Below, piece after piece: positions 825-21,141 of a DNA stretch of 64,000 nucleotides. The translations under genes were made by a program, and so were the position numbers. This DNA is from Talaromyces rugulosus (lineage: Eukaryota > Ascomycota > Eurotiomycetes > Eurotiales > Trichocomaceae): NCBI RefSeq assembly GCF_013368755.1, contig NC_049566.1:4154001-4218000 (forward strand), read 5' to 3'. Positions within the stretch are counted from its first letter, which is position 1; the number at the start of each line of letters is the position of its first letter. The notes beneath the pieces were generated by a model. The model worked only from the letters and a program-made list of their open reading frames with translations. It was not told the origin of the DNA and ran no database searches.

Positions 825-1670
825 TCAAGGGCCGGTGTATGTAACGTCAACTTCGGAAGAGCTGGGGACCTCAACATCGGTCAACACAACGTTGTTTTGC
901 TGAATATCCAAAACATCGGCGCCGTCGGTGCCCACGGTGGACCCGTCAGAGACTCCAGCGGCCGAGTTGGTGAATTGGATGGTGCCAAAGTTGGCAAATG
1001 GCACCTGGCTGCCATTCGAGTCAAAGTCTTCGACGATCCATTCGGCATTCTGGCCTCCGAGATTGGAGTCGGACGAAGGCGCCGTCAGATCCTGACTAAC
1101 CTGCTGACCGCTGGTCAGGTTCTCGATCACGCATGTACCGGCACTGCTGCTGCTCGACGAGACGGACACCTGGATCACATCACCAGCACTGATGTCGATG
1201 CCGGAGAAGTCGTAGGCGTAGTCCGGGAACCACTCGTACCAGGCATCGTATGAAACATCGCCAGCCGTGGAGATAGTAAAGTCCACGCCGGTCTGGAGAA
1301 TGGCCGCAGAGTAGGTGTCGCCGTCGATTCCAACCCAGGCAGAGGCAGACGAGTCGGCAGTGGCGCCTGAGGGCAGTTGGGGAGTTGGCACAGTGAACTG
1401 GGCGCTCACCGAGGTGAAGGTGGTGCCGGACGGAGGCGCGGTGAGGACGGCGCCACCCCAGTTAGAACTGTAGTCGACGTGAGTGCGGTTGGCCTGCTCA
1501 ATCCTGGATTTCTCGTCGCCGGTCAAGGCCGGAGCAGGGATCTTGGGATGGGTGAGACGCTCGACTCCCCGTCCGGTACGGCGAGAAACGCGAGAAGTGA
1601 GGCCATGGCCAGAGGGAGCAGCAACAGCAGAAGCTGCGAGCAGAAGTTGGGCGGCAATAGAAAGCTTCAT
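825..1670 (-). CDS. Eqolisin (G1 family) acid endopeptidase, aspergillopepsin II-like
   Basis: Single-exon gene for a 281-residue secreted acid protease. Residues 1-18 form a signal peptide (hydrophobic LLLAASAVAA core). A basic propeptide with dibasic sites follows to about residue 66, then the mature beta-sandwich starting near YSSNWGGAV. The two catalytic residues of the G1 family are visible: Gln91 in SAQFTVP and Glu210 in NAEWIVED. Length and layout match fungal glutamic peptidases, which digest protein outside the cell at low pH. The ATG at 1670 lies about 135 bp downstream of a TATA-like box, and a GCCAGG hexamer (PacC core) lies on the same strand at 1769-1774. Acid-pH regulation is plausible by family but inferred. 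The gene looks intact. Confidence 0.93.
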   Translation of the reverse strand: MKLSIAAQLLLAASAVAAPSGHGLTSRVSRRTGRGVERLTHPKIPAPALTGDEKSRIEQANRTHVDYSSNWGGAVLTAPPSGTTFTSVSAQFTVPTPQLPSGATADSSASAWVGIDGDTYSAAILQTGVDFTISTAGDVSYDAWYEWFPDYAYDFSGIDISAGDVIQVSVSSSSSSAGTCVIENLTSGQQVSQDLTAPSSDSNLGGQNAEWIVEDFDSNGSQVPFANFGTIQFTNSAAGVSDGSTVGTDGADVLDIQQNNVVLTDVEVPSSSEVDVTYTGP

Positions 1671-3676
1671 GTTGACACTTGATCACAAGCTTCAATATGT
1701 GAGTTTAGTTTATCGATTCTGCTGTGCTGCTCAAGGCAAAAACAGGTGCAAACAGTATGGAAAGCGAGCCTGGCGGGGGAGCACATTCCACAGGGCCCGG
1801 CGACATTATATACCACACACCACGCCTGTCGGTACAGAGAGCATTTACTCCGGCATGGCAGGAGGTCCGGAGCGATCGGCAACAAAAAGCATTTTCGCGC
1901 AAATGAGGGTTGTACATACTACGCAGTCAATCCAATCATCCCGCAAGCGGGAACATGGAGATGGTGGATTAGGGCAAGCCTTTTTGGGATGGCGTGCTGG
2001 CATGCCGCCGTGCGTTAATCAGTAGAAGCCAATCGAAATAGAGGCTAAATAAAGAGAAACCGCTAAGGAGATAGTAGTAGACAGGCCCAGATTCCACCGA
2101 TCCCAAAGTTTTGCGTCCGGCGGTGATTTTGGCCTCGGCTAAAGGCATTTAGGGCTGGCGTCCGGCCCCTTGGTGACATGCAGCAAGGCGCCCCGTTAGG
2201 TAAGGCGAGCTTGATTATTACTCTAATGCTTCGTACGTCTACCCATGCCTTTCTCAGGTCATGGATAAGCTAGGTGATGAGTTCGAGGGGCTCGGACTAA
2301 CAGTCGCAGCGTAGCTATCCAGGAATCCAGCTGCTACGAGCGACATCGCTGCAGGCAAGCATTCGACCCTGCGTGACCACTGACCAGGGGTCAGACGAGA
2401 TCGAAAGATCGGCGCTGCTAAATCAGAGCCTAATCAAATACGAGCCTGTCTGTCTGCGTAACCAAGCAGATGGCACGAGGACTCGCATGCTGACATGGTG
2501 GCGCACCCTCATTTCCAATAATTATTTATTGGCGTTTAGTACATATCTACAGTAGTACGTACTACCTCAAGTGTATTATTGCTGGTGGTGTGGTACTGCA
2601 TGGCCAGCTTTTCCATTTTGAGTAATTTTGCGAGTCGTAGTGATCAGGTGAGAAAAAGCTAGTATCGCCACCTTTCAAAGTTCATGTATAGTATTTATTA
2701 ATACACCAGTTCGTATAAGTAGATCGTGCTAGATAACTTGAGTTTCTTTCCGATGCTGGACATACAAGTGATTTTGCCCTAACCCGCGAACCTCGCCGAG
2801 GTATACGTTACGTACCTTTGAAGCTTGGTCAACGTTTCAGATTTCTTATAATCGCGTCCTTAGCCCTGATGCAACCACGTGTTAAGCCACAGGTTTGTAA
2901 TCCAGCCTACATACCACGCGGCACATGCTATAGAAACCGTCGTTTCTAGGAGGCGGTCCGGTATGTCGCACATTCTTCGCGCGGTTTTTTCTTTGTTCAG
3001 CAAATCTTCGCCTTAAAAGTGGCATGCATATAGCACACGTATAGTTTTGTTATTTAATCTCAATACATATCAATTGATGCCCACTGATCAACTAGTAGAT
3101 GGCATTGGGTTCGATGCTGTGTCCGGTCAGAGAGTAAACCCCTTCATAGTGTATATATATATTTTGAGGTGATCACTGGATTTCACTCAAATTGCTTTTT
3201 TGACAAAAATTTACTGAATGAGTATTCTCTCTATTTTACATATCTATTCTTAAATAATTGATAGCTCGAGGCGTTTATGTGTATTTATGTGTAGAGTTGA
3301 CTGGAATAGTTCATCTCCTTGGCCGCGGGCTATATTTTGGCATATCTCTGCGTGTAAACTACATGTAGAAAGGCTAAAAATTATCTTAATGTCGCATTTA
3401 CCGAATTTAAATTATAGCGCCCCACTTCGATTACAATATCCGTATTGTCAATAAAGAAGTAGTAATAGAGCGGCGGGCCCATGACGTGCAAGACCGAAGA
3501 TTACGATGCGATATCCTTCGGGAATCCCTTCGATTTTCGGGCCGCAATAAGTATGTAGATATTGAAGCTGGATGACCATAAACATAGAGGTGTAGTTGGC
3601 AATTTTGTTGAAAATAATCTATTGAGACTTAAACTATTATCTACTTTGTATTGACTACATTCAAGGAGGAAAAAAA
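1671..3676. other. 2-kb gene-free stretch
   Basis: Apart from the promoter of the protease gene, no reading frame longer than about 60 codons resembles a protein and no tRNA or clear repeat is seen. GC drops and short AT-rich runs are common after 2500. Together with the pseudogene that follows, it may be old degraded sequence. Confidence 0.5.
1805..1812 (-). promoter_or_regulatory. TATA-like box of the eqolisin gene
   Basis: TATATAAT on the minus strand, about 135 bp upstream of the eqolisin start codon. The spacing suits a strong TATA-type fungal promoter. Assignment is by position and consensus only. Confidence 0.45.
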
Positions 3677-4596: not shown

Positions 4597-5350
4597 TTAC
4601 ATACGAAATCGCTTCATCTCGTCTATTGTCCAATACTTTCTCATATTCTCCGCCCCAAGAGTACGAACCTCGTCATCCAGATGCTCCCACAGCACCTTAC
4701 CAAACGTATCCATGACCCCCTTCATCTCGGACAGCCTAAGCTCCTTCTCCCCAGTCCTACAAGCTTCCAAGTACTCCTCCAACCGATCCATGCCCTTGTG
4801 GATCTCCTTGTGCTGTTTAAGCAGATCCAATCCATTTTTGAACTGTGGCATCTTCTTGGCAAGGTTGGGGAAGACGTGTTGCTCCTCGATGCTGTGATGC
4901 ATGTTGAGCTGCGAGGTGAACTCCATCCCCATGTTCATGAACTGGCGGATTGAGACGCCCGATGGTCTTTTATTGGCGCAGCAGGCGTCGTAGAGTGTAT
5001 TCCAGGTGTGCCGGAAATGGTTGTGCTGATGTGAATTAGTAATATTTCTTCCATTATACCAACACTAAGCATGAAAAGGGACGTACAAAATACTCCATAT
5101 GCTCAGCCAACCGGTTATATTCCCGAAACTCCGATGCCGACAGCTTAGGAAGAGCCTCGGTCTCTTTCGACGGAGCATCTGGGTTGGTACTCATGGTACT
5201 GATACGATGCCTGTGAGCAGATAACTTGGCAACCGTCCCAACCCTGACAGAGTCCAAATACCTGCGTTGTGGGATTGATGAGGGTAGTATCTGCCGAGTG
5301 CAAGTGGCGATGGCTCGCAGTTTGCTCGCTGGCCCAATGCAACAACGCAT
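4597..5350 (-). CDS. Hemerythrin-like HHE cation-binding protein
   Basis: Two exons, 5350-5087 and 5025-4597. The 61-bp intron (GTACGT...TTCACATCAG) joins EHMEYF to HNHFRHTW in frame. The protein is a four-helix HHE bundle with the di-iron type ligands in order: HNHF, HHSIEEQHVFP, HKEIHKGMD and HLDDE. From the first ATG it has 230 residues. An internal ATG at residue 53 (MSTNPDAP) gives 178 residues, the usual size of cytosolic fungal HHE proteins. The Arg-rich, nearly acid-free first 50 residues could be a mitochondrial presequence, or the region could be 5' leader. Members bind iron or oxygen; the specific role here is unknown. Confidence 0.85.
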
Positions 5351-5976: not shown

Positions 5977-8900
5977 CTAGTTGCTGGGAAGTTCCACCCT
6001 CCTTCTCGCTCCTCTGCTGGCGAGAACCTTGATATAATCCGAAATTCCACAGCCGTGTCTATTCATATAAGCGGCTGCCTGGGTGATTGCCGACGGAAGA
6101 ACGTCAATTTCGCCAAGAAGTGTAATGGCAGCACCTCTGTCAATAGGCAGGCGTTTTTTTCTAAGTAATGTCTCGAGTATTTTTATCCCAGTCTCTGGAT
6201 CTGGTTTTAAGACTGTCACCTTGTGAAATGACTGCAGTGGTATAGATAGTTTTTGATTGCGTGAGGTAACAAGACAACGACCCCGCAGCCCATGAAACGG
6301 AGGGAATGGCTCGAGATGTCTCTGAAATTCGGTGCTGGGTTCGAACTGCAACTGCGCAGAAAACATTGCGGTATTAAACACCTCTATATCATCACAACCA
6401 TCGAGAATAAAAAGCCACTTCCCGTAAGCTCTTTGGTGGAACTGGATTTGAACTTGCTCAATTCCTAATCCAGGATGCAACCTTTTGATCTCAATTGACC
6501 TTGCGATCTGTCTGTAGGACCGCTGAATATAATCGGAGGTAGTACATGAAATCCAGAATATCGAGAACTCAGGATGTTTGTCTCGGATGCGATGTGCCAA
6601 TTCAAGGGCAATCTGAGTCTTTCCGATTCCATCTGGCCCATCCAGAATGGCCCTACAAGGTCCATTCCGTTGCATGACCCATTCTTCAAGGTTTTTGAGC
6701 TCATCACTCCGGCCCACAAATCGTGTGTTTCGTGAAGGAAGCATCCAGTGGCGTAGACGACCTACAAAACATGTTTAGTATACTGAAAATTGGTCATGAT
6801 TTTACTCCTTGCCTGTAAACGAGTCTCGATAGTCCAAGAAAGCCCTGGCAGCAGAAGCGCCATTGGCTGCTGCATAGTATTGCCATGTCGTGTTCCTGTG
6901 ACTGTCTACATAGTCGCATACCCCTTTGATACTAATACCTTGAGGGTGACATGTTTTCTCTGATTTATTAATGAAACCAATCACGCCATATTCTTGAGTA
7001 AGTTTGTCACGGTATTCTGCAGACTTGCTGGTTATCTCGATGGGCATAACTTTCCCAATGTGCGCAGTTACTCGGGCTTTTTCTGAGCTGTCTCGACGAC
7101 GAATAATTTGCTTCCTATCATTACCGAAGAGTTCGTCTTCCAAGCCTGGGTGTCGCCACTTTATCTCTGATTGCTGGAGTTGGTAACGGTACCGCGATAT
7201 CTGGCCATTAAATAGTTCAAGGTCCTCAGTCTCATTCAGGCTGTTAAGAAGGGTTCGAACTTCTGGAATTGAGCTTTTCGGGAAATTTTCGAAGGGCCGT
7301 CTGCTAGGATTATAGTCATGATGATATCTAATCATATTGTTACTGACGATAACATCACCTAGAAATATTTCGTTATCTCCTGGTGGATATGGAGCCCCTC
7401 CGCAGGTACCCACGATCAGGACAAGTTGTATTTCAGGGTAGTCGGGCAGTGAGTCTGAGATAAATTGCTCTGCAGTGTCATCTTCACCTTGGTAGTATAG
7501 GAGAACATTATTGTTACCGATTCTTCCCTTCAAAAGTGAGTCGAGATCTCCCTGTTCTTCATCAGAAACCTTGCCGGGGTCATCGTATATTTCGTCAAAG
7601 AATGTATACACAGCCTCAAACACTATATAAGACTCGCAGAGAATTGCGACTGCAAAATCGTCGTTGCTTTTAGGTCGCAGTTTGCTCTGCTGGGTCTGGG
7701 AGGAGGGCTCAAGAATGGCGCCTGGTAAATGCCGAACCTGAGCATTCCCAAGTCTCTGAAAGTCATTGAAACCGATATCGTCAAAATACGTGTCAGCGGT
7801 TTCCCTAACATCACAATGCTCCTCTCTAATTGGATTCTCATCGAAGGTCAGGGGTGCTTCGCGTAGACTCTCATCAAACCCACTTGGATATGAAGCGTCA
7901 GAACCTTCGGCCCTCAGATGGTCTTTCTCTTCATCATCAGTCTCAGAGGGTTCTGTTTTTAGCTCTGGGCAATCGAATCTCGGAATAAACTTGAAAGCGA
8001 GATCCTTCAGGTGCCACGCAATGTGCTCGTACAAGCCTTTCTTGGTGTTGGGGTCATTCTTCGAGATCAAAGGCTTTAGAAAGTCTGGAACACATTCGCA
8101 GATGGGGCAACAGAACTCATCCTCCCGGGCAGGCCATTTCTGCCATCCCAGAAAAAGCATCTCGAGTTCATCCTCAGTCGGAGGCTTTCGACCGGGGTGG
8201 CTGGCCGGGTCCATCATGTGTTTCCGGAAACTCTCACGTTCGGTAAACTGAAGTACAGTGTCGTGACCGGTGTCACAATCCCAGGTGTGCGTGTGAACTT
8301 TTCTGTTCCACTGAGGTGAATGACTGTTCTCCATGTGGTCTATCCACTCCTTCATGTTGGAGAAAAAAACCAAGGGATACGTGCAACACTCTGAGAGACA
8401 GACATAAGGCTTTGTATCTCCATCTATATGGTTCCTAAGAAATTGTCAAGCAGATTCCAGCAAAACAAACGGGTAGAATGATTATACTTACTTCCAGTAC
8501 ATTTTATCTCCTTTTAGTATACCAGTGCCGAGCAGTTCAGAGCAGTATGGGCACACGCAGAAATCGTGACGTTTAAAAATTTTGGGCATTTCGGGATACG
8601 CCATCGAGTATAGATGGGCTGAATATTCATCGTTTTCCAGGAGGGCCTGAAATGGATTATGACCGAGGTACTTTTTCTTGAAGCGCCGTGCCGTCTGAAT
8701 AAAACGTATGCGGCGTATTACAAGAGATGTAGCAAGCTGATCGCGCAGATATTGTCTAGCGTTCGGGAATAAGTTCCTCACGAGGGTGGAGGCATACTGC
8801 TTATAATAATCGTCGTCAGTATTGGGACGGATTGAGAGTGTATACTTGTCGGGGCGATTAAAGTGCTGGTCGATTCTATCCCACATGAAGTGTAACTCTC

Positions 8901-9296
8901 TGACGGAAAAATCGATTGCCCACGTGGCGTGTTCTTCTGTCTCATCATAGTTACCCTTTCCGTTAACTGAATGTTTGATAATTAGATTCGCGATGTCATA
9001 TCCACCGATTATGCTTGAGACTTACAATATTGAAGACTTATGGCAAGCACTTCGAGGAGATCAATGATCGAGTCCTTGGCATCCGAGTAATCCTCTAAGC
9101 GATCATCAAGACAGCTATAGGTACCAGACAGAGCCTTAGTCTTGTAGACCCAGTAGTTAAAGCTTGTTTCCATTTTTTCAATGAAGCTTCTCGTGTGCCC
9201 AGGGCCCATAGACCCCTCGGTCAGGGAGCCAAAAACCGCTCTGCACTCAATAGCGGTAGAACTAATTTTCGGTTCTGGACTGCTTTTTGCCGCCAT
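5977..9296 (-). CDS. Zn-finger / PNP_UDP / NB-ARC NOD-like receptor, no C-terminal repeats
   Basis: Four exons by eye: 9296-9026, 8966-8492, 8434-6813, 6761-5977, giving 1050 residues. Introns 1 and 2 have GTAAGT donors; intron 3 reads in frame only with a GC donor (ACAG|GCAAGG) and has a TACTAAAC branch site. Domains in order: helical N-terminus; Cys/His-rich fungal finger region at about 225-390 (CPYCSELL, PYVCL, FCCPICECVP); PNP_UDP nucleoside-phosphorylase-like domain at about 506-789 (AVAILC, VGTCGG near 590, KGVCDYVD); NB-ARC from about 796 with Walker A GPDGIGKT (831-838), Walker B LFILDGCDD (about 906-914), sensor VTSRN and a GLPL-like VLPSA. It stops there, without winged helix, TPR, WD or ankyrin repeats. 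PNP_UDP is a known N-terminal effector of fungal NLRs. It is divergent from the protease gene. Confidence 0.85.
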
Positions 9297-10168
9297 GCTG
9301 ACACTGTCGTCAATTAGTGCTTTGGAAAATGTCGGGCTTGGTAATGAGCAGTGTTGACGGCTTAGAACAGCTGTTAAGAGCAGGTCAGGATGAGTACACG
9401 ATTGAGGAACTGACTGGAAATTGTCAGCTTATCTGCATGATAAATGAACAAAGGAAACAGCGTCATAAAGCGAACCACAGCGAACTCTCATATCCCTCAG
9501 TGTGATCCTATTGGGCTTTTCAGATCCGCTTAGGTGTTTTTAATGCATTGACTAGCCAATGTATCTTGTGTATTTTCACCATGAAACGTATTAATCAAAG
9601 GATTCTGTAAATAACCAGGTGAGATGATAATGGAACCGTATTAATCAAAGAATTCTGTAAATAACCAGGCCAGATGATAATGGAACCCTGCACATGCATG
9701 ATACTGAGAAATAGTACAAGTTCAGATAGTAGCCGAGATCTGGGACTAACTATACTGGGATTAGACGATCTACATACTTGCTGATTTAGGAAATGATGAA
9801 ATACCTAAGATCAGGGCAACTCCACTTTTATACCCATTTCAGTGTTGACTTTGGGCATCAATGCATGTCTAAATTACTACTGGCACGGCGGTTAAAATGT
9901 TTTCGAAAAAAGGAAACAAGCAACCAGTAAGATGGTGGGCTAACCAGCCACTAATTTCTGAAGAGATTACCCTAAGATCTGGGGATTTATGGGCCTTGAT
10001 CAGAAACTTAAAAAGGTTGGCAAAAAACGCCAAATATAACCGCATTTCTGTCTGATATCTGACGTCAGTCAAGTAAAGCCGAATCAATTGCAGTTATCTT
10101 TGTTGAGTGGAAGTCGACCGAGTTTGATCGTCCAGGGGATCAGGAAGAAACGGTTTCAGGTTTTAACG
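9297..10168. promoter_or_regulatory. Divergent promoter region between NLR and protease genes
   Basis: About 0.9 kb between the NLR start codon and the first ATG of the protease frame. It contains a duplicated 50-bp unit and several stop-rich frames. Both flanking genes are probably driven from here. A short plus-strand frame at 9329-9505 was considered as an upstream exon and not accepted. Confidence 0.45.
9587..9686. repeat. 50-bp direct repeat, two copies
   Basis: Two adjacent units, 9587-9636 and 9637-9686, both starting CGTATTAATCAAAG and ending near GATGATAATGGAAC, with only about four differences. It lies in the shared NLR/protease promoter region, so it may duplicate a regulatory element; this is inference. 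Confidence 0.8.
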
Positions 10169-12941
10169 ATGCACATCCGGGTGCACTGGAGTGTTTTTGT
10201 TGCTGTTCATCCTCTGTTCCAGAAAGCTCTACCCCAGACGTGCAGAGGCTCTGTACACGATGTTGATGTTAAACTCATTCGTGAAACACTCGTTTCCGTT
10301 TCATTTGTCCTTCCCAAAATCGACCTAAACTACGATCTCGAGAATCCTAGGCATAGTGCCATTTCAACGGCCCTAGTCCCTTTGTTAGAATTTCTAGAAA
10401 CTCTTGTCAAAGAAGAGGTGCTAGAAATGAAACATAAGGCTGCGATCTCTGAAGAGGAGTCAGATGTGCGAATGGCATCAGACCTTTTTTCTTTTCGTCC
10501 TAAATGCAGCTAACGATCTTGTTAACAGTTGTTTGCCAAATACCCGAAACTAGCCATTCTGAGGAGCATGGTGAGGTGCTCAGAATCCAATATGCCATTG
10601 ACGACACGACTTGAAACGTATATCAACTATATCGATCCCGAAAATTCCGGACAGAACGACCTTCCCCAAGTGGCAGCGATGATGAACAATCTCAAGGACA
10701 AATTCTTGAGCGAATCGCTTGAAGCTCTGAAGGCGAAACTGGCGGATGCTGGTAACCTCAAAGAACATGAAATACGTTTCATCGAAAGAGCAGGCCGTCT
10801 GAACTCGACGTCTTGTTCATTGTTCAAATGCTTATGAAGAGCATAGGCTGTTCTAGGGAGCACCCAGCCAGGTTGCATCTCTCTGGTTTCGACTGCAATG
10901 AAAATTTCGAATTATTCGTTATCGAATGTGAAAAGCAAGATTGGACATCGACTAACTGCATATTGTCAGACCATTGTCCCATTTATGTCCCGATGTCTCG
11001 CTAACTGTTCCTATAGTACCCCCCCTGAAAAATGCAGCCCTCCTCTCAAATATACCCTCCGCACTGGTCAGCAATACGGGGCAGCCAACCCCAAAACTAT
11101 GCACCTAGCATTCAGCAATGACCATTTGTCGAACGGCGAGAGGTTTAAGCCATCGATATGGCAAGGTCCAGACTTGGATTCCATTCCAACACTTTACGAT
11201 TTATTGCATCCAAAAAGAAACGATGATGATGATACCTTGACCTCTAAGGCGGACAGTTTTGTGCATGAGGATCAAAAATTTGTCGAGTTTCTTATTGCAT
11301 ACTCGTTGCTCAACCTGGATGCCAGCGCATGGCTGGGTACCGACTTGGATGTCCAGAATATCTTTATTCTTGCTACACCGAATCTCGATAGACGGTGGAA
11401 GCCACACGTTGTGTGTAGCCTCAAAAACGAAGTCCTTTCCGATAAGACCTACGATGTTATTTCATCTTTTGGTATCCTTCTCATGGAGATTGAAGCAAAG
11501 CGGTCTGCAGGTCTAGGAGCCAGGAACAATGGATGGGAGACAAATCTCTCTCCCAAGGACGCTATGTTAAACAGGATTGTGCAAGATTGGGGCCGCGAAG
11601 TTGATAACAGATATATAAATGTTGCTACTGCATGTTTACGATTTCGAGAGCTGTCAGAGACCTTCTACGATCCACTCTTGCCCGAACGCATGAACGACAT
11701 TGGAACGTTCTACAAGTACATTCTAGCACCATTGTATCGACTTGTTACACAGCAGCATGACAAGATCTCTCTACTTTGTTTAAGGAATTTCCTGACACCC
11801 TCCATGCATCCCTCGTCGCCGGGCAGAGCATCTCCAACCAATCCACTTCACTTCTATTTGACGACTGCGACAAACACGACGATAGGTGTGGCTCTGTATT
11901 GCGAACCATATTAACCGGGATTCTACTAACAGATGCGAACCTGTTAGAGATATCAAAAACGCAGAAACTTTCATGGAGGCGATTAAGTTTTTCGGCACCA
12001 TAATTAAGAAAGCAAGAAATTCCTCAGATTCTCGGAGGAAGAAGATACGGATAGCAGTGATTGATACTGGCATCGACGACGAAGACGATATCTTGATCAA
12101 AGGCGCCCGAGACTCCGGTCGCATCACAAATTGCCGCGGATTTACCACCGGTAACAACGGCGATTACAAAGATGTCAATGGTCACGGCACGCATGTTGCA
12201 AGGCTAATATTACAAGTGGCCCCAGAGGCGGAGATTGTTATTGCCAAGGTATCTGACGGTTCAACCATGAAACCATCAGAGTATCGTCGCATAGCACATG
12301 TTAGTTCTTCATCTTAGCACCTTTTGTTTTTCTCTTCTCGCGTACGCTGACTATACCAGGCCATAACATGGGCTCATAGGGAGATGAATGCGAACATCAT
12401 CTCGATGTCTTTCGGCATCGAGTATGACAGCGAAGTCGATGAGGCTATCCATGCGGCATACAAAGATGACATCGCCATGTTTGCCGCTGCCTCAAACAGT
12501 GGTGGCAACAGAGACCGACCGTATCCATCCAACAGGTCTAACGGTGTGATATGCGTTCATGCCAGCGATGGCCTTGGAAACAATGGTGGAATTAGCCCAT
12601 CGCCCGAAAGAAAGTTGCATAACTTCTCCACCCTGGGCATCTCCGTCCCATCGAAGTGGAAAGGGAACGACGTGCTGAAATCGGGCACTTCGTTTGCAAC
12701 TCCGATTGCGGCAGCTCTAGTAGCAAATGTACTCGAGTTTTCCAGTCATATATGTAATCCTACCGAGAAGCAGAAGAGCCGTCTATGCGCGTTTACTGGC
12801 GCTCGTGACATTCTACGTCTCATGGCCAAGGAAAGACAGGAATACGATTATGTTTATCCTTTCCATATAAACTGGGATGAGAAGGAGCAAGAGGATATTG
12901 TGAGAAAGTTGTATAAGATTGCTCGCGGCCAACCAATATAA
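10169..12941 (+). CDS. Subtilisin-like S8 serine protease with N-terminal helical (DUF7580-like) region; frame interrupted
   Basis: The C-terminal part is a clear S8 peptidase with the whole triad: Asp in AVIDTGID, His in NGHGTHVA, Ser in KSGTSFATP, plus the Asn of AAASNSGG. Supported introns: 12300-12359 (GTTAGT...ACCAG), 11886-11947 and 10965-11016; one at about 10466-10528 is possible. Upstream is an all-helical region with HPARLHLSGFD, LIAYSLLNLDASAWLG and LFDDCD, typical of fungal DUF7580-type proteins. The frame changes without a convincing intron near 10805-10830 and again near 11770 (a 41-nt non-consensus intron is the only alternative there). The start is uncertain; 10169 is the first ATG. 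It is either decaying, mis-assembled or oddly spliced. The nearby gasdermin-like gene suggests a protease that activates a pore-former, by analogy with Podospora HET-Q2. Confidence 0.7.
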
Positions 12942-13519
12942 GCAATTTGGTGGCATACCTCTACGGTTCGCCTATGCTTAGAATATCAAGGGTTGAGATA
13001 CGGCAATGATCTTTACTTGGCAGTTTTTCAAAGGGATGAGGTCTAATGAAAATACGAAAGAAATTATTGAGATTCCAGCCTCGCGCTTCTATGCGTATGA
13101 GATTAATCACCCTGGTTTTGAATTAGACGCTTCGGTGTACCCTCGTTAATTTGAAGAATATCCCAAGATAGCCAACACATTGGATTTTGTGATTACATTC
13201 TTTGTGAGAAACACTTGTAAAAAAATAAAGAAAAAAGACGTGTTTCCAATACTGAAAGAGGTTTCCACACTAGGACCTCAGCACGTAATGATAAGTCGAT
13301 GAGCCCAAACTTTGGCTACTTTCTGTCAGGTGATTATACCAAAGCACTCTGTATTTTACTTTTGACTGCTTAAACGAGGCTGGGGGGGGCAACTGAATTA
13401 TACCCCACAATAGGCCATGCTTGAGCAGATATCTTCCCACAAGAGGGGAAATTGCCCAGATTTCAGCAAAGGAATCATAACTTGTACCCTTACTCTGTGG
13501 CTTCCATACAGCAGTTACA
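12942..13519. other. Spacer between protease and gasdermin-like genes
   Basis: Terminator/promoter region of 578 bp. A 47-codon frame at 13006-13149 (begins MIFTWQFF) is open, but neither its length nor its content supports a gene. A run of nine G lies at about 13382-13390. Confidence 0.4.
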
Positions 13520-14398
13520 ATGTCGACAACAGCCAGTACAATAATGCAGCCAACTTACCATCTTCCCCCGAACTTTTCTACGCCGCCTCCTCCTACAGGG
13601 CCATATCACCTGGGGACCATTATCCGGGACGTCGAACACAAGAAACAGATGTGCCCGCTTAACTCTGGCAAGGACATGTATGGTAAAGACAAACGAATCA
13701 GAATAGACACCGATATTCACCGGGACCACAAGGATGGAGTCGAGCTCACCGGATCCCAGCTGAAGAGCGGCGCGGTTGGCTTCTGGTCCAAATTTATGGG
13801 GTGTGGAATCAACGGCGAGGCTAGCATGACGGCCAACCGCAGCGAAACGGACACGTACAAATTCAACAGTCTTGATACAGAGTTTTTCTTCCCAACGAAA
13901 AGTTACATCTCGCAGTGCATGGAGCTCTCCGACGTCCAAGAATACCTGGAGGTTACAGAGTACAAGAAGCCCGTGTATCTCGTCACCGGGATAAAGGTTG
14001 CCAAAGGGGTCTCTGTGCGGCAGGAGAGTGCTATTAAAGTGGAGGGAAAACTGGGTCTGGGACTGAATATTCCTGTGGGATCGAATATCCAAGTTGGCCC
14101 GAGAACGGAGGCCAAGGTCGAGAACAAATCTGTATCTGCCTTCGGGGATTCCAGCGACATTGTAGTTGGTATTCAGTGTTTGAAGATCCGTTATAAGCAT
14201 AGCTGGTTTGGAAAAAGTCAGTGGCGAGTTGAAGAGGCTCACACCCGCGGCGCTACATTTCTCTCCAGCGATAACAGCAAACCACTGACGGAAGAGTTAG
14301 ATAATTTCACCCTTGAGGGTGAGGTTGAGAAATACCTTTACCACCAACCCACTGAGGAAGGTAAAGAGGAAGAGATCTGGAAGCTTCCTGCAGAATGA
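13520..14398 (+). CDS. Gasdermin-like pore-forming protein (HET-Q1/RCD-1 type)
   Basis: Intronless, 292 residues, starting at ATG in TTACAATGTC. After a Pro-rich head the protein follows the fungal gasdermin N-domain pattern: GPYHLGTIIRD near residue 27, a short helix and hairpins, DTEFFFPTK, the membrane-insertion-like stretch, KKPVYLVTGIKVAKG around 150-165, alternating polar/apolar beta strands, and GIQCLKIRYK near 215-225. No signal peptide, as expected for a cytosolic latent pore-former. The last 45 or so residues are strongly acidic (TEEL, EGEVEKY, EEGKEEE) and could be the removable inhibitory tail; in Podospora HET-Q1 a short C-terminal piece is cut off by the subtilisin HET-Q2. The S8 protease gene lies 578 bp upstream on the same strand. 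The assignment is by pattern; no search was run. Confidence 0.68.
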   Translation: MSTTASTIMQPTYHLPPNFSTPPPPTGPYHLGTIIRDVEHKKQMCPLNSGKDMYGKDKRIRIDTDIHRDHKDGVELTGSQLKSGAVGFWSKFMGCGINGEASMTANRSETDTYKFNSLDTEFFFPTKSYISQCMELSDVQEYLEVTEYKKPVYLVTGIKVAKGVSVRQESAIKVEGKLGLGLNIPVGSNIQVGPRTEAKVENKSVSAFGDSSDIVVGIQCLKIRYKHSWFGKSQWRVEEAHTRGATFLSSDNSKPLTEELDNFTLEGEVEKYLYHQPTEEGKEEEIWKLPAE

Positions 14399-14888: not shown

Positions 14889-16490
14889 CTAGAAATAAGG
14901 TAGAGTCGCAAACCACTGCTCAAACAGTTCCACCCTAGCCGGAGGCGAAATAGGTATATTTCCCCAGCCGTCACCAACGTGCTGGACCACTTTAGAGGAG
15001 TTTGTTGCTGCCCATTCTACCAGAGCATTTCCATTAGAATCTAACCCATTAGGATCTCCCGTTTTGATAAAGTTAACCCAGTAGGAGTTCATTTTCTCGG
15101 CAATGGTGTAGTCCGCAGACTCCCAGGGCAGATCCGTGTCATACAGGTTGTTTAGAACATAGTTAATCTCCGATTCGTGGTGGGCACCCTGGTTTTGGCC
15201 TGGCGGTGCGTGGTCCCAGAAATAAGTATACACAGACGCCGTGCGCGTTGTGTTCCACAACTGCGCCCACATCCAGGTGCCAACTTTGGAACGATCAGTC
15301 CATTGTGAATCGTACGCGCCTCGCGCAGTAACAGAGTCGTTAGCTGGATATTGCTTGAGGAAGTGGTCCAGCCACACCCCCGAGAACGTTTCGTTCATGT
15401 CTGACAGATACTCGGAAACGGTAATACTCAGGTTATAAGTGGCACCGTTTTCATCCTTGGTGTTTCCCGTGATCACGGGCACATTATGCGCCAATCCTTT
15501 CACCAGAGTGTTGTAATAAGTGTCCGGCATGGCGTAGTAGTCGAGTACTGCAGTAAAGCTGAATGATGAGGAGCTGCCCGGGGTAGACGAACCGGAGATG
15601 AGATCGTCCATGGGCAGCTCCCGTGCCTCTTCAATGGTGCTTACATTCAAAGATTTGAGGTATTCAATACCTTGGAGCTCGGCGTCGGCGAGCGTTATGT
15701 AGTTCTCGGCCAGAGATGAGCACAATGGATCCTGTGGGTCGCGCACACCACTCTCAATAATTGCACCGACAATGAGCCCCTTGGTCAAGGGACTATTGAG
15801 CATGTGCTGTGTGGCTGCAGACCCAGCCGACTGACCCATTACCGTGATATGGTCCGGATCACCGCCAAAAGCAGCGATGTTGTTGTAAACCCATTCCAGA
15901 GCGGCGAACTGATCAAGCATGGCCCAGTTTCCAGACGAGTTGGAGCCCGAGACCTTATAAAACTCCTTTGAGAGGTCTGGATGCGACAGCCAGCCAAAGG
16001 ACCCGGATCGGTAATTGTAGTTCACGAAGACGATGCCCTTGTCAGCCATGCCGCCGCCGTTAAACAAGGAATCAGCAGCGGTGGATGCAGCAGGGTAGGT
16101 CCACATGACCACAGGTAGCCTACTATCGGTAAAATTTGCAGCACTCCAGATATTGAGGTTGAGACAGTCCTCATTAATGGTGTAATTGCCGGTATCTGAG
16201 GTGGCGGACGGACAGACAGGGCCCCAAGATGAGGCATATAGCGTGCTATTCCATGGACTGGCTGGCTGCGGTTCCTTGAAACGGTTTTTACCAGCAGTTG
16301 TCGCTGCAAACGGAATACCTCTCCACACAGCAACATCTTGCCAGTGAGTCAGATTGCCGGCGGTCTCGCTGCTAAAGGCCGGGTAGCCCTGGACAGCACC
16401 ATATTTGGTCTGGATGATGGTGTCGTAGAGAGTGGCCGCAGAAAGCCTCGTCAATAGGAGAAAGGCGGCGAAAGATAAGGCTTTGTCCAT
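14889..16490 (-). CDS. Secreted type-B carboxylesterase
   Basis: Single exon. The ATG at 16490 gives 533 residues starting with a signal peptide (MDKALSFAAFLLLTRLSAA). The upstream in-frame TTG is not used. Esterase/lipase family B features: EDCLNLNIW, nucleophile Ser221 in VMGQSAGS, acid Glu347 in KDENGATY, His437/438 in GAHHESE, and many N-glycosylation sites. The oxyanion-hole loop, normally HGGG, reads TYPAAST here (about 131-137), with a GGG only later in FNGGGMAD. The enzyme should still fold as an esterase but its turnover or substrate class is uncertain. It is divergent from a second family-B esterase, so the pair shares a promoter. Confidence 0.9.
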   Translation of the reverse strand: MDKALSFAAFLLLTRLSAATLYDTIIQTKYGAVQGYPAFSSETAGNLTHWQDVAVWRGIPFAATTAGKNRFKEPQPASPWNSTLYASSWGPVCPSATSDTGNYTINEDCLNLNIWSAANFTDSRLPVVMWTYPAASTAADSLFNGGGMADKGIVFVNYNYRSGSFGWLSHPDLSKEFYKVSGSNSSGNWAMLDQFAALEWVYNNIAAFGGDPDHITVMGQSAGSAATQHMLNSPLTKGLIVGAIIESGVRDPQDPLCSSLAENYITLADAELQGIEYLKSLNVSTIEEARELPMDDLISGSSTPGSSSSFSFTAVLDYYAMPDTYYNTLVKGLAHNVPVITGNTKDENGATYNLSITVSEYLSDMNETFSGVWLDHFLKQYPANDSVTARGAYDSQWTDRSKVGTWMWAQLWNTTRTASVYTYFWDHAPPGQNQGAHHESEINYVLNNLYDTDLPWESADYTIAEKMNSYWVNFIKTGDPNGLDSNGNALVEWAATNSSKVVQHVGDGWGNIPISPPARVELFEQWFATLPYF

Positions 16491-17207
16491 ACTGGCTGAA
16501 TGGAACAAAAGCAATGGCTGTGTTCAATTGCCCAGTGGAGAGGGGCATCCTCGAGGGGAGGGTTTTATAGTAGTATTTGGCCCCTGTTTTTCCCTGATGC
16601 GTCGTCACCTAGTTTCCTTGAAACAAATCATTGATCTACGTGTTGTTTATCTTTCCGTGCTAATTCTGTTGGCACAAGCCATCCAGACCATGGTCCTGAT
16701 CTGCGAGTAGTAAGTAATACTACATCAGGACTGGCAATCATCCATAAGGCGGCACCGCTTGTTCAGTAGTATTCATCGCTCCAAATAGCGAATGCCATCC
16801 ATATCCTACTTTTCTGGGGGGAAAACGATTACCACTAGTAGCTTGGTATGGATGGAGTCTATTTAACGACCCTGCAACATGGCTAAAGTCTTATGCGGTG
16901 CTCCGCTTCATCGAAGTAACCCCCGGATAATACTTTTCTTTACATTGCACTAGTGCTGTTTTTACCGCGAATCATTGATCAAAGCTTTTGGCTTTAGATC
17001 TGTGCTGACGCGTATCTTACAGTAAGTAGAGGATCCGGTTATGCCAGCCTGCCATCCCACAGTGGAAAAGGCGCCGATCACATTGCATTCAAATGTTTTT
17101 TTTTTTTGTATGGGGTAACCAATGGAGGGTTCAGGTACATAATGATCTAAAGGTGCATCCCGGGTGCTCGAAAATGCATCTACATCCCCCAAGAAATAAC
17201 CACAGCC
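16491..17207. promoter_or_regulatory. Bidirectional promoter of two carboxylesterases
   Basis: 717 bp between the two start codons, with an interrupted T tract at about 17096-17107. No gene lies inside. Joint regulation is inferred from the layout only. Confidence 0.45.
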
Positions 17208-19559: not shown

Positions 19560-21141
19560 CTATAGTTCGGAGTGCTTGATTTTGTTGGGTGGCCTAAAGT
19601 TGCCCTTCCTGAGCTCTTGAATAGCCAAATCAAATCTGGCACCCAACATCCAGGCAATGAAAAACTGTTTTGTAGTTTAGTATACGGTTGTACCTGAGGG
19701 TTTGAAAGTACACGTACCAGGATTACTGAGATACTAAGGACCATAGCGCCCATGATGGCGAACATCACTTTCATGTCATCCCAGGACTCCTGTTGTCGTT
19801 TCTTGGCCTCCTCATCCTCCTTTGACACCTCTCCAGCGACCTTTCGCTGGGCGTCCTCGATCTGCTGCGATGGGAAGAGCGTCTCGACGAATTTCTCAAT
19901 CTGTTGAAGCAACATTAGCAGCTACACACGCAGCAAGAAAGGGTAAAAACGAACACTGCCACAGGCAATACTGATCTTCACAAAGTTGGGATCCTTGGGT
20001 GTGTTTTTCTGGTGTATCCGGCGGGCATAAGTGCGAAACGTGTTGCAAAGCACTTGCAAATTTTGTGTAGACTCAATCATTAATTGGCAAGCATCACCTT
20101 TGGTAATTTTGACATTGCGTTGAAACATAGAGTAATTGCGGAAGCAAAGCTCCAGAGTCGCAATGGCCATGGCCTGCGGAATAGCGGAAAAGTTAAACAC
20201 ACTTTGCTCGCGGAGGCCAGCAAGGTAGAAAATGCAGTCTTCAACATGCTCCAGAGCATTCAAAACCATCTCCGAGTTGCAGTTCAGCGCAGCTTCTTTG
20301 TACTTGGGATTGAAGAGATCTTCAAACTGGTCGACATGCTTGGACCAAATTTCTTTGGGCCAGAAATGCCTGTTATCGTCATGATCTTCACGCACATCAC
20401 GGATGATGTTGATCTTCTGCAGGAAAAGACCCATCGATTTGTGCAGTTTGGGGCGAGACAGCAGTGCGGGGTTGCCGAACTTGGCTTCGACAAATAGGCG
20501 GGTTAAGCCTTCGCCGACAAGACCGGCAACATAGTAGCAGTACAGATCATATTCTTCAATTTTCTGCACGCTGATGCCATCGCTGGCAGCCTTGACGACA
20601 AAGTCAGCCATGCCGTTGCCCATTTTATTCGTCATGTCTTTAATGATCGCACGGTACGCCGGTTTCAGGGATTTGTACTCGGCGATAACATTTTCAAACT
20701 CGACAAGGAGCTGGCGGTCCTTTTCCTCTTTGCGGTTGCCATTCCAGTTCCAGCCGTCTTTCTCGATGATATTTTTGAAATCACGTAGAAGCGGCTCTTT
20801 TACATCCAGAGGCACCGAGGTGTCATCTTCAATGGTATCGAGTCCACGCAAGACGAGGTAGAAGACAGCAATGGGAACCAGCATCTCCGGATGCAGCTCC
20901 ATGATGACAGCCGAAAAGCTCCGGCTGGTCAATTTAAGGAAGTGGAAGCTCTTTTTGCGTGTCTCTGGGTCCTGCGACGCATCCCGTTCGTGCGGAGGAT
21001 TGTGCCATACTTTCCTACACGGGCATCGTCAGTTCAAGGCCGCCGTGGTACATAGGTGGCAGGTAGCACGAACCATTGGAGAATGGACCTCAGCTGTATG
21101 GGATGGCAGCTGTAGTAGGCGATATTCCAAAGCAAACCCAT
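19560..21141 (-). CDS. erg9: Squalene synthase (farnesyl-diphosphate farnesyltransferase)
   Basis: Four exons: 21141-21074, 21014-19955, 19900-19718, 19664-19560, giving 471 residues, the family's usual size. Introns 1 and 2 both use a GTTCGT donor, intron 3 GTACGT. Two farnesyl diphosphates are condensed to squalene in the ER membrane, the first committed step to ergosterol. The two Asp-rich Mg2+-diphosphate motifs are visible: DTIEDD (82-87) and DVREDHDD (about 229-236), as are the conserved [10 protein letters not shown] and FCNAIP-like FSAIPQAMA. The C-terminal exons add the membrane anchor ([15 protein letters not shown], then FFIAWMLG) and a basic tail. The LRSI and WHNPPHERD head restored across intron 1 confirms the start. 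Confidence 0.95.

What the first reader, a model, noticed from the sequence alone, without database searches (positions are those of the whole stretch)
5977..14398. Gasdermin-like gene clustered with a subtilisin-like protease and a PNP-type NLR
The sequence shows a 292-residue protein with the fungal gasdermin pattern 578 bp downstream of a complete S8 catalytic triad, and a PNP_UDP/NB-ARC receptor diverging from the same locus. In Podospora anserina, HET-Q1 (gasdermin) is activated by HET-Q2 (subtilisin) to cause cell death, and fungal gasdermin genes are reported to lie near protease or NLR genes. This is therefore probably a regulated cell-death (allorecognition or immunity) module, with the NLR as a possible third component. 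The three-gene link is inference.
Basis: partly seen in the sequence, partly recalled or inferred. Interest (0 to 1): 0.92.

Follow-up and report, generated by a model that had tools for sequence, protein, structure and literature searches.

The report
Fungal gasdermin with subtilisin partner
A mould carries a pore-forming cell-suicide gene beside the protease that should switch it on, a known kind of pair; here the protease gene looks broken, and the same genome holds three more such pairs, two with a much-diverged pore-former.

Summary
The window is Talaromyces rugulosus, and 13520-14398 encodes a gasdermin. It matches RCD-1 (E 2.5e-9), the bacterial gasdermin profile (E 1.5e-5) and the RCD-1 fold. 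It lies 578 bp downstream of a DUF7580-subtilisin (S8) gene whose relatives in two other fungi lie on contigs of the same length as the closest gasdermins there. This is the published fungal two-gene module: a gasdermin with a HET-Q2-like protease, in which cleavage of a short tail frees a membrane pore.

Three corrections. (1) As assembled, the protease gene has two frame changes in its sensor half; the S8 half is open. The window module is probably decaying, unless these are assembly errors. (2) The PNP-NACHT receptor is real but ends straight after its NTPase domain. It does not recur at the genome's other modules, so a third-component role is unsupported. (3) Four S8 genes of this type were found in the genome, each beside a gasdermin-like gene. 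Two partners belong to a family without a Pfam model that shows the gasdermin fold; its overlap with the published gasdermin census could not be checked. One protease carries a 5-phosphatase-like domain with changed catalytic motifs.

The parts
13520..14398 (+). Gasdermin (fungal gasdermin-like pore-former), 292 aa, one exon; the database copy of this genome's own protein is 284 aa
14249..14395 (+). C-terminal tail layout: conserved G-A-[TA]-F ending at Phe247, acidic variable linker, conserved Trp287; predicted cleavage after Phe247 would free 45 residues
   Evidence: Phe in 21 of 26 rows (Leu or Met in 5); 45-60 residues follow in 25 of 26 rows; Trp in 26 of 26 (one row, P0019, ends short, so its Trp may be an alignment artefact). 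Cleavage itself is inferred from HET-Q1
10169..12941 (+). DUF7580-S8 subtilase gene (HET-Q2-like, TRUGW13939_11742); probable introns 10466-10528, 10965-11016, 11886-11947 and 12300-12359
11093..11671 (+). DUF7580 domain (PF24476), sensor half of the protease
   Evidence: (E 6.9e-15)
12039..12749 (+). S8 catalytic domain in two exons, Asp/His/Ser motifs present
10819..10840 (+). Frame change 1: conserved protein sequence continues in another frame without room for an intron; the deposited gene model skips the stretch as a long 'intron'
   Evidence: shifted-frame piece 50-54% identical over 52 aa to P0085 and P0086 (E 6e-15, 7e-14, against three relatives only)
11765..11776 (+). Frame change 2, in the linker between DUF7580 and S8
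   Evidence: shifted-frame piece 11.9 bits against a profile of the three relatives' linkers, 0 of 2000 shuffles reach it; in-frame piece -0.2 bits, 1244 shuffles reach it. BLAST alone is ambiguous here (shifted E 0.001 to P0086, in-frame E 0.003 to P0085)
5977..9296 (-). PNP-NACHT/NB-ARC receptor, divergent from the protease; ends straight after the NTPase domain

Best explanation
The window holds a member of the known fungal gasdermin two-gene module. Inferred mechanism: the cytosolic DUF7580-S8 protein acts as sensor and protease. When its sensor half is engaged, the subtilisin domain cuts the neighbouring gasdermin after the conserved hydrophobic residue Phe247. This frees a 45-residue acidic tail; the pore-forming domain then oligomerises in the plasma membrane and kills that hyphal compartment (non-self fusion, virus or another intruder). 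Shown here: homology, fold, pairing, tail layout, and linkage elsewhere as far as contig lengths show it. Inferred: cleavage, trigger, pore. In this assembly the protease gene carries two frame changes in its sensor half, so in strain W13939 this copy is more likely decaying than working. The NLR is probably a neighbour, not a required part.
For: Gasdermin homology and fold. Own-genome searches find two gasdermins of this type and four S8 matches to this type. Of 17 S8 loci (19 PF00082 matches) held with 1.5 kb flanks, four have a gasdermin-like ORF in that stretch and 13 do not; the four are the same. In Trichoderma evansii and Xylariaceae FL0255 the DUF7580-S8 protein and the closest gasdermin found lie on contigs of equal length (1,033,202 and 625,363 bp). 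Frame changes. Gasdermin drift: 5 of 54 conserved positions changed against 0-2 in its four nearest rows; end branch 0.55 against 0.23-0.32 for those four. Reviews state that about 80% or more of fungal gasdermin genes lie beside protease genes (passages).
Against: The structure model has low confidence (pLDDT 57). The frame changes could be assembly errors: eight long ORFs of the window, about 15 kb, run uninterrupted, but they were picked for being long. Linkage in other species rests on contig lengths alone; distances are unknown. The drift test has few rows: P0035, in the same clade, departs at 11 positions with end branch 0.97, P0032 and P0046 at 5, P0048 at 13.
Confidence: 0.72

Rival explanations
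1. The module is whole and working in W13939; the two frame changes are sequencing or assembly errors.
For: The S8 exons and the gasdermin are open; probable introns explain the other frame steps; indels in short repeats are typical long-read errors (general knowledge; how this genome was sequenced was not found).
Against: Two such changes within about 1 kb of one gene, against none in eight long ORFs of the window (picked for length); a third frame change in the gasdermin of the C6:3.28 Mb module, which could equally mean that the assembly has such errors; the window gasdermin is also drifting.
Confidence: 0.35
2. An allorecognition allele in the making: the sensor half decays, the S8 half is kept as a free protease like the 388-aa HET-Q2, and it reacts with gasdermin variants of other strains. 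This is the 'pseudogenization' model that a review proposes for het-Q1/het-Q2 (passage).
For: Both frame changes lie in the sensor half or its linker, none was seen in the S8 exons; the catalytic motifs are present; the own gasdermin departs from its family at 5 of 54 conserved positions.
Against: No population or transcript data were available; a free active protease beside an intact gasdermin would need a resistant gasdermin.
Confidence: 0.12
3. A three-gene pathway in which the PNP-NACHT receptor drives the protease.
For: Divergent neighbour 872 bp away. DUF7580 is fused to PNP elsewhere in the genome, so the PNP and S8 effectors share a sensor type. A review mentions two- and three-gene clusters (passage).
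Against: At least 63 PNP clusters in the genome, chance expectation about 0.02 within 5 kb; none near the other three modules. The receptor lacks what follows the NTPase part in NF040586.
Confidence: 0.08

Closest known systems
HET-Q1 / HET-Q2 of Podospora anserina
   Same: Gasdermin plus S8 subtilase; hydrophobic residue about 40-45 residues from the C-terminus (HET-Q1 F238 of 278; here F247 of 292)
   Different: HET-Q2 is a 388-aa protease; here S8 is preceded by DUF7580 and the gene is frame-broken as assembled. The family profile reaches HET-Q1 (9uv9) only at E 0.068, next to unrelated rows at 0.07-0.1
RCD-1 of Neurospora crassa
   Same: Closest solved gasdermin in sequence and fold
   Different: RCD-1 is not controlled by cleavage but by two allelic variants, of 257 and 244 aa; the window protein is 292 aa with a longer tail
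Bacterial gasdermin (bGSDM) systems
   Same: Gasdermin beside a dedicated protease; the bGSDM profile matches (E 1.5e-5)
   Different: Fungal host, subtilisin with a DUF7580 sensor half; lipid anchoring not tested
Fungal PNP-NACHT/NB-ARC NLRs
   Same: Phosphorylase-type effector plus NTPase
   Different: No repeat region after the NTPase; no evidence that it acts on the gasdermin

Membership tests
Fungal gasdermin (fGSDM), window protein | Sequence homology to a proven gasdermin | tested here: met
   RCD-1-2 E 2.5e-9; profile E 1.3e-13; bGSDM E 1.5e-5
Fungal gasdermin (fGSDM), window protein | Pore-forming-domain fold | tested here: met
Fungal gasdermin (fGSDM), window protein | Short cleavable C-terminal tail | tested here: inconclusive
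   Layout present; cleavage not testable here
Fungal gasdermin (fGSDM), window protein | Membrane pore and cell killing | not testable with these tools
   Needs expression
HET-Q2-like protease (Q2L) | S8 domain with catalytic triad beside a gasdermin gene | tested here: met
HET-Q2-like protease (Q2L) | Intact reading frame | tested here: not met
   As assembled, two frame changes in the sensor half and linker; assembly error not excluded
HET-Q2-like protease (Q2L) | Cuts the neighbouring gasdermin | not testable with these tools
   Needs biochemistry
Fungal NLR | NACHT/NB-ARC domain with N-terminal effector | tested here: met
   NACHT 29.5 bits, cut-off 26.7; PNP through paralogues
Fungal NLR | C-terminal repeats | tested here: not met
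   The ORF stops at 5977; NF040586 is matched over positions 1-218 of 830 only
Three-gene module with NLR | NLR recurs beside gasdermin-protease pairs | tested here: not met
   In this genome 1 of 4 modules; nearest PNP cluster 75, 79 and 689 kb away for the others (PNP-type receptors only). Other species not testable
Gasdermin (second family, C2 and C4 modules) | Sequence homology to gasdermins | tested here: inconclusive
   hhalign E 0.0011, probability 20; best PDB match RCD-1-2 at E 0.62; family-1 profile finds the C4 and C2 proteins at E 0.0016 and 0.004, while the second-family profile finds the window gasdermin only as a cut copy at E 0.027; no bGSDM hit
Gasdermin (second family, C2 and C4 modules) | Gasdermin fold | tested here: met
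Gasdermin (second family, C2 and C4 modules) | Adjacent protease gene | tested here: met
   2 of 2 full-length members found lie tail to tail with an S8 gene

The most novel reading that the evidence does not exclude
T. rugulosus carries a second, strongly diverged gasdermin family for which Pfam has no model. Both full-length copies lie tail to tail with a HET-Q2-like subtilisin. One of the four sensor proteases uses an inositol-polyphosphate 5-phosphatase (synaptojanin-like) domain whose catalytic motifs are changed, apparently a pseudoenzyme decoy. Fungal gasdermin sensors would then include pseudoenzyme baits, which would point to what they detect: tampering with phosphoinositide enzymes.
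Probability: 0.3. Interest if true: 0.72.

Novelty: new member of a known kind. Interest (0 to 1): 0.5.

Why it matters
A review names the triggers of fungal gasdermin sensors as a major open question (passage). One genome with four gasdermin-subtilisin pairs, whose proteases carry DUF7580 (two), a 5-phosphatase domain with changed catalytic motifs (one) or no other recognised domain besides S8 (one), gives concrete sensor domains to test. The window copy itself adds a case of apparent decay that fits the birth-and-death picture and can be checked by resequencing.

Tried and rejected
NLR as essential third gene: rejected for lack of recurrence. Mobile-element (Starship) origin: no DUF3435 captain match lies within 500 kb of the window locus; the nearest to any module is a degraded match about 28 kb from the C6:3.28 Mb locus. 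Relatives in viral or prokaryotic contigs: none confirmed for the first family in viral contigs, nor for the second in viral contigs or genome contigs. Transfer of the window gasdermin between classes: the three Eurotiomycete rows fall in three places, but no starred branch forces more than one origin, so it is not shown (22 of the 26 rows, the 4 without an organism name dropped). NCBIfam gives no gasdermin name. The PDB sequence search and VIA did not list HET-Q1 (9uv9) for the second family; that is no evidence against it. Frame change 2 was first doubtful, since BLAST of short pieces was ambiguous; a linker profile with shuffles settled it. The primary survey (Clave 2022, PMC8851545) is not held, so I could not check whether the second family or the phosphatase-S8 architecture is already in it. 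Print searches: DUF7580 0 papers; gasdermin+fungi+synaptojanin 0; gasdermin+Exo_endo_phos+fungi 0; fGSDM 4 papers; all in the held open-licence library only. Papers: passages seen of PMC12881547, PMC10989679, PMC10197012, PMC11138114 and PMC10885436; none read whole.
Full report
What is there. The window is G000:C6:4154001-4218000. The DUF7580-S8 protein of the window is identical over the searched region to TRUGW13939_11742 of Talaromyces rugulosus, on a contig of 4,978,393 bp, the length of C6, so the organism is T. rugulosus (Eurotiomycetes). A paper cites strain W13939 as a mycoparasitic biocontrol candidate (reference title seen).

Protease. Upstream lies a gene with DUF7580 (PF24476, E 6.9e-15) and S8 (PF00082), 10169-12941. 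The two best-matching solved structures are intracellular serine proteases of the subtilisin type, in line with a cytosolic enzyme. The search with its DUF7580 part, limited to proteins of 0.55-1.75 times the query length, gave 4 hits of 919 candidates, one its own copy; the other three all have DUF7580 plus S8. In T. evansii and Xylariaceae FL0255 the protease and the closest gasdermin found share a contig length (1,033,202 and 625,363 bp), so the pair appears linked in Sordariomycetes too; the distance between the genes there is unknown.

Frame changes. Against P0085-P0087 the window gene needs introns at about 10466-10528, 10965-11016, 11886-11947 and 12300-12359. Two frame changes remain that no intron can take up. 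Near 10.82-10.84 kb the shifted frame continues the protein at 50-54% identity over 52 aa (E 6e-15 and 7e-14 against the three relatives), whereas the first frame matches for 15 residues only; the deposited 796-aa model skips this stretch. Near 11.77 kb BLAST of short pieces is ambiguous (shifted frame E 0.001 to P0086, first frame E 0.003 to P0085), but against a profile of the relatives' linkers the shifted piece scores 11.9 bits, reached by 0 of 2000 shuffles (1858 reported), and the first-frame piece -0.2 bits, reached by 1244 of 1983 reported. Intact copies exist in other species. Whether the changes are real or assembly errors cannot be told here; eight long ORFs of the window (about 15 kb) are open, but they were picked by length. 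The gasdermin departs at 5 of 54 conserved positions; its four nearest rows depart at 0-2, but P0035 of the same clade at 11, and more distant rows at up to 13.

NLR. 9296-5977 (-) has a PNP-type part (34-36% to paralogues that carry PF01048) and NACHT above cut-off. NF040586 is matched over its first 218 of 830 positions only: what follows the NTPase part there is missing. 83 matches in the genome (a lower bound) form 63 clusters, and about 0.02 are expected within 5 kb of a random point; the other three modules have none nearer than about 75 kb. One link is worth keeping: DUF7580 is also fused to PNP in this genome. One stretch has both Pfam domains (C5:3.03 Mb); at C1:6.36 Mb the DUF7580 and PNP-like matches share one 647-aa frame.

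All modules found in the genome. The S8 piece finds four loci; PF00082 finds 17 loci in 19 matches (a lower bound). Scanning these loci, 1.5 kb on each side, with profiles of both gasdermin families gave neighbours at four of 17, the same four. They are the window; C6:3.28 Mb; C2:1.396 Mb; C4:2.362 Mb. At C6:3.28 Mb the gasdermin is of the first family (29% identical). Its protease carries a domain matching a synaptojanin-type 5-phosphatase (1i9y, E 8.9e-42; PF22669, E 8.8e-46) in which the aligned motif letters differ at N to D, QE to QG, GD to GN, DR to GR and SDH to SDQ (that these are the catalytic positions is recalled). The tail of that gasdermin lies in a shifted frame: the piece scores 4.2 bits against the family profile, reached by 0 of 2000 shuffles (1417 reported). 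At C2 and C4 the partners are 47% identical to each other and belong to a second family without Pfam model; both are full-length open frames. The C4 protease has DUF7580, with an intron that takes out its one in-frame stop; the C2 protease has S8 and no other recognised domain. The frames of these two proteases were not tested against relatives.

Verdict. Known kind of system, new member; the window copy is probably decaying. The interest lies in the set of four modules and in the pseudo-phosphatase sensor.

Noticed in passing
L003:5667-7800 (C6:3.284 Mb): Subtilase fused to a synaptojanin-like 5-phosphatase domain with five changed motif letters; possible pseudoenzyme decoy beside a gasdermin.
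   Followed up: partly
L003:4788-5647: The gasdermin of that module has its C-terminal tail in a shifted frame.
   Followed up: partly
L029:3986-4789 (C4:2.361 Mb): The second-family protein is 93% identical to one of Leptodontidium (a Leotiomycete, recalled), 89-90% to Clarireedia and 85% to Trichoderma evansii, while the two copies within this genome are 47% identical; suggests transfer between classes, no baseline computed.
   Followed up: no
L062 (C2:1388642-1388824): Fragment of a second-family gene about 7.7 kb from the intact one.
   Followed up: no
L053:1501-2703; L052:334-2277: DUF7580 fused to PNP_UDP_1 in L053 (both Pfam models match); in L052 DUF7580 and PNP-like matches share one 647-aa frame. 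The same sensor domain is used with two kinds of effector.
   Followed up: partly
L003, L028, L029, window: Three of four gasdermin-subtilase pairs are tail to tail; the window pair is head to tail.
   Followed up: no
window 828-1682 (-), 4600-5064 (-), 14892-16523 (-), 19925-21028 (-): Flanking genes are ordinary: peptidase A4, hemerythrin, carboxylesterase, squalene synthase family.
   Followed up: yes
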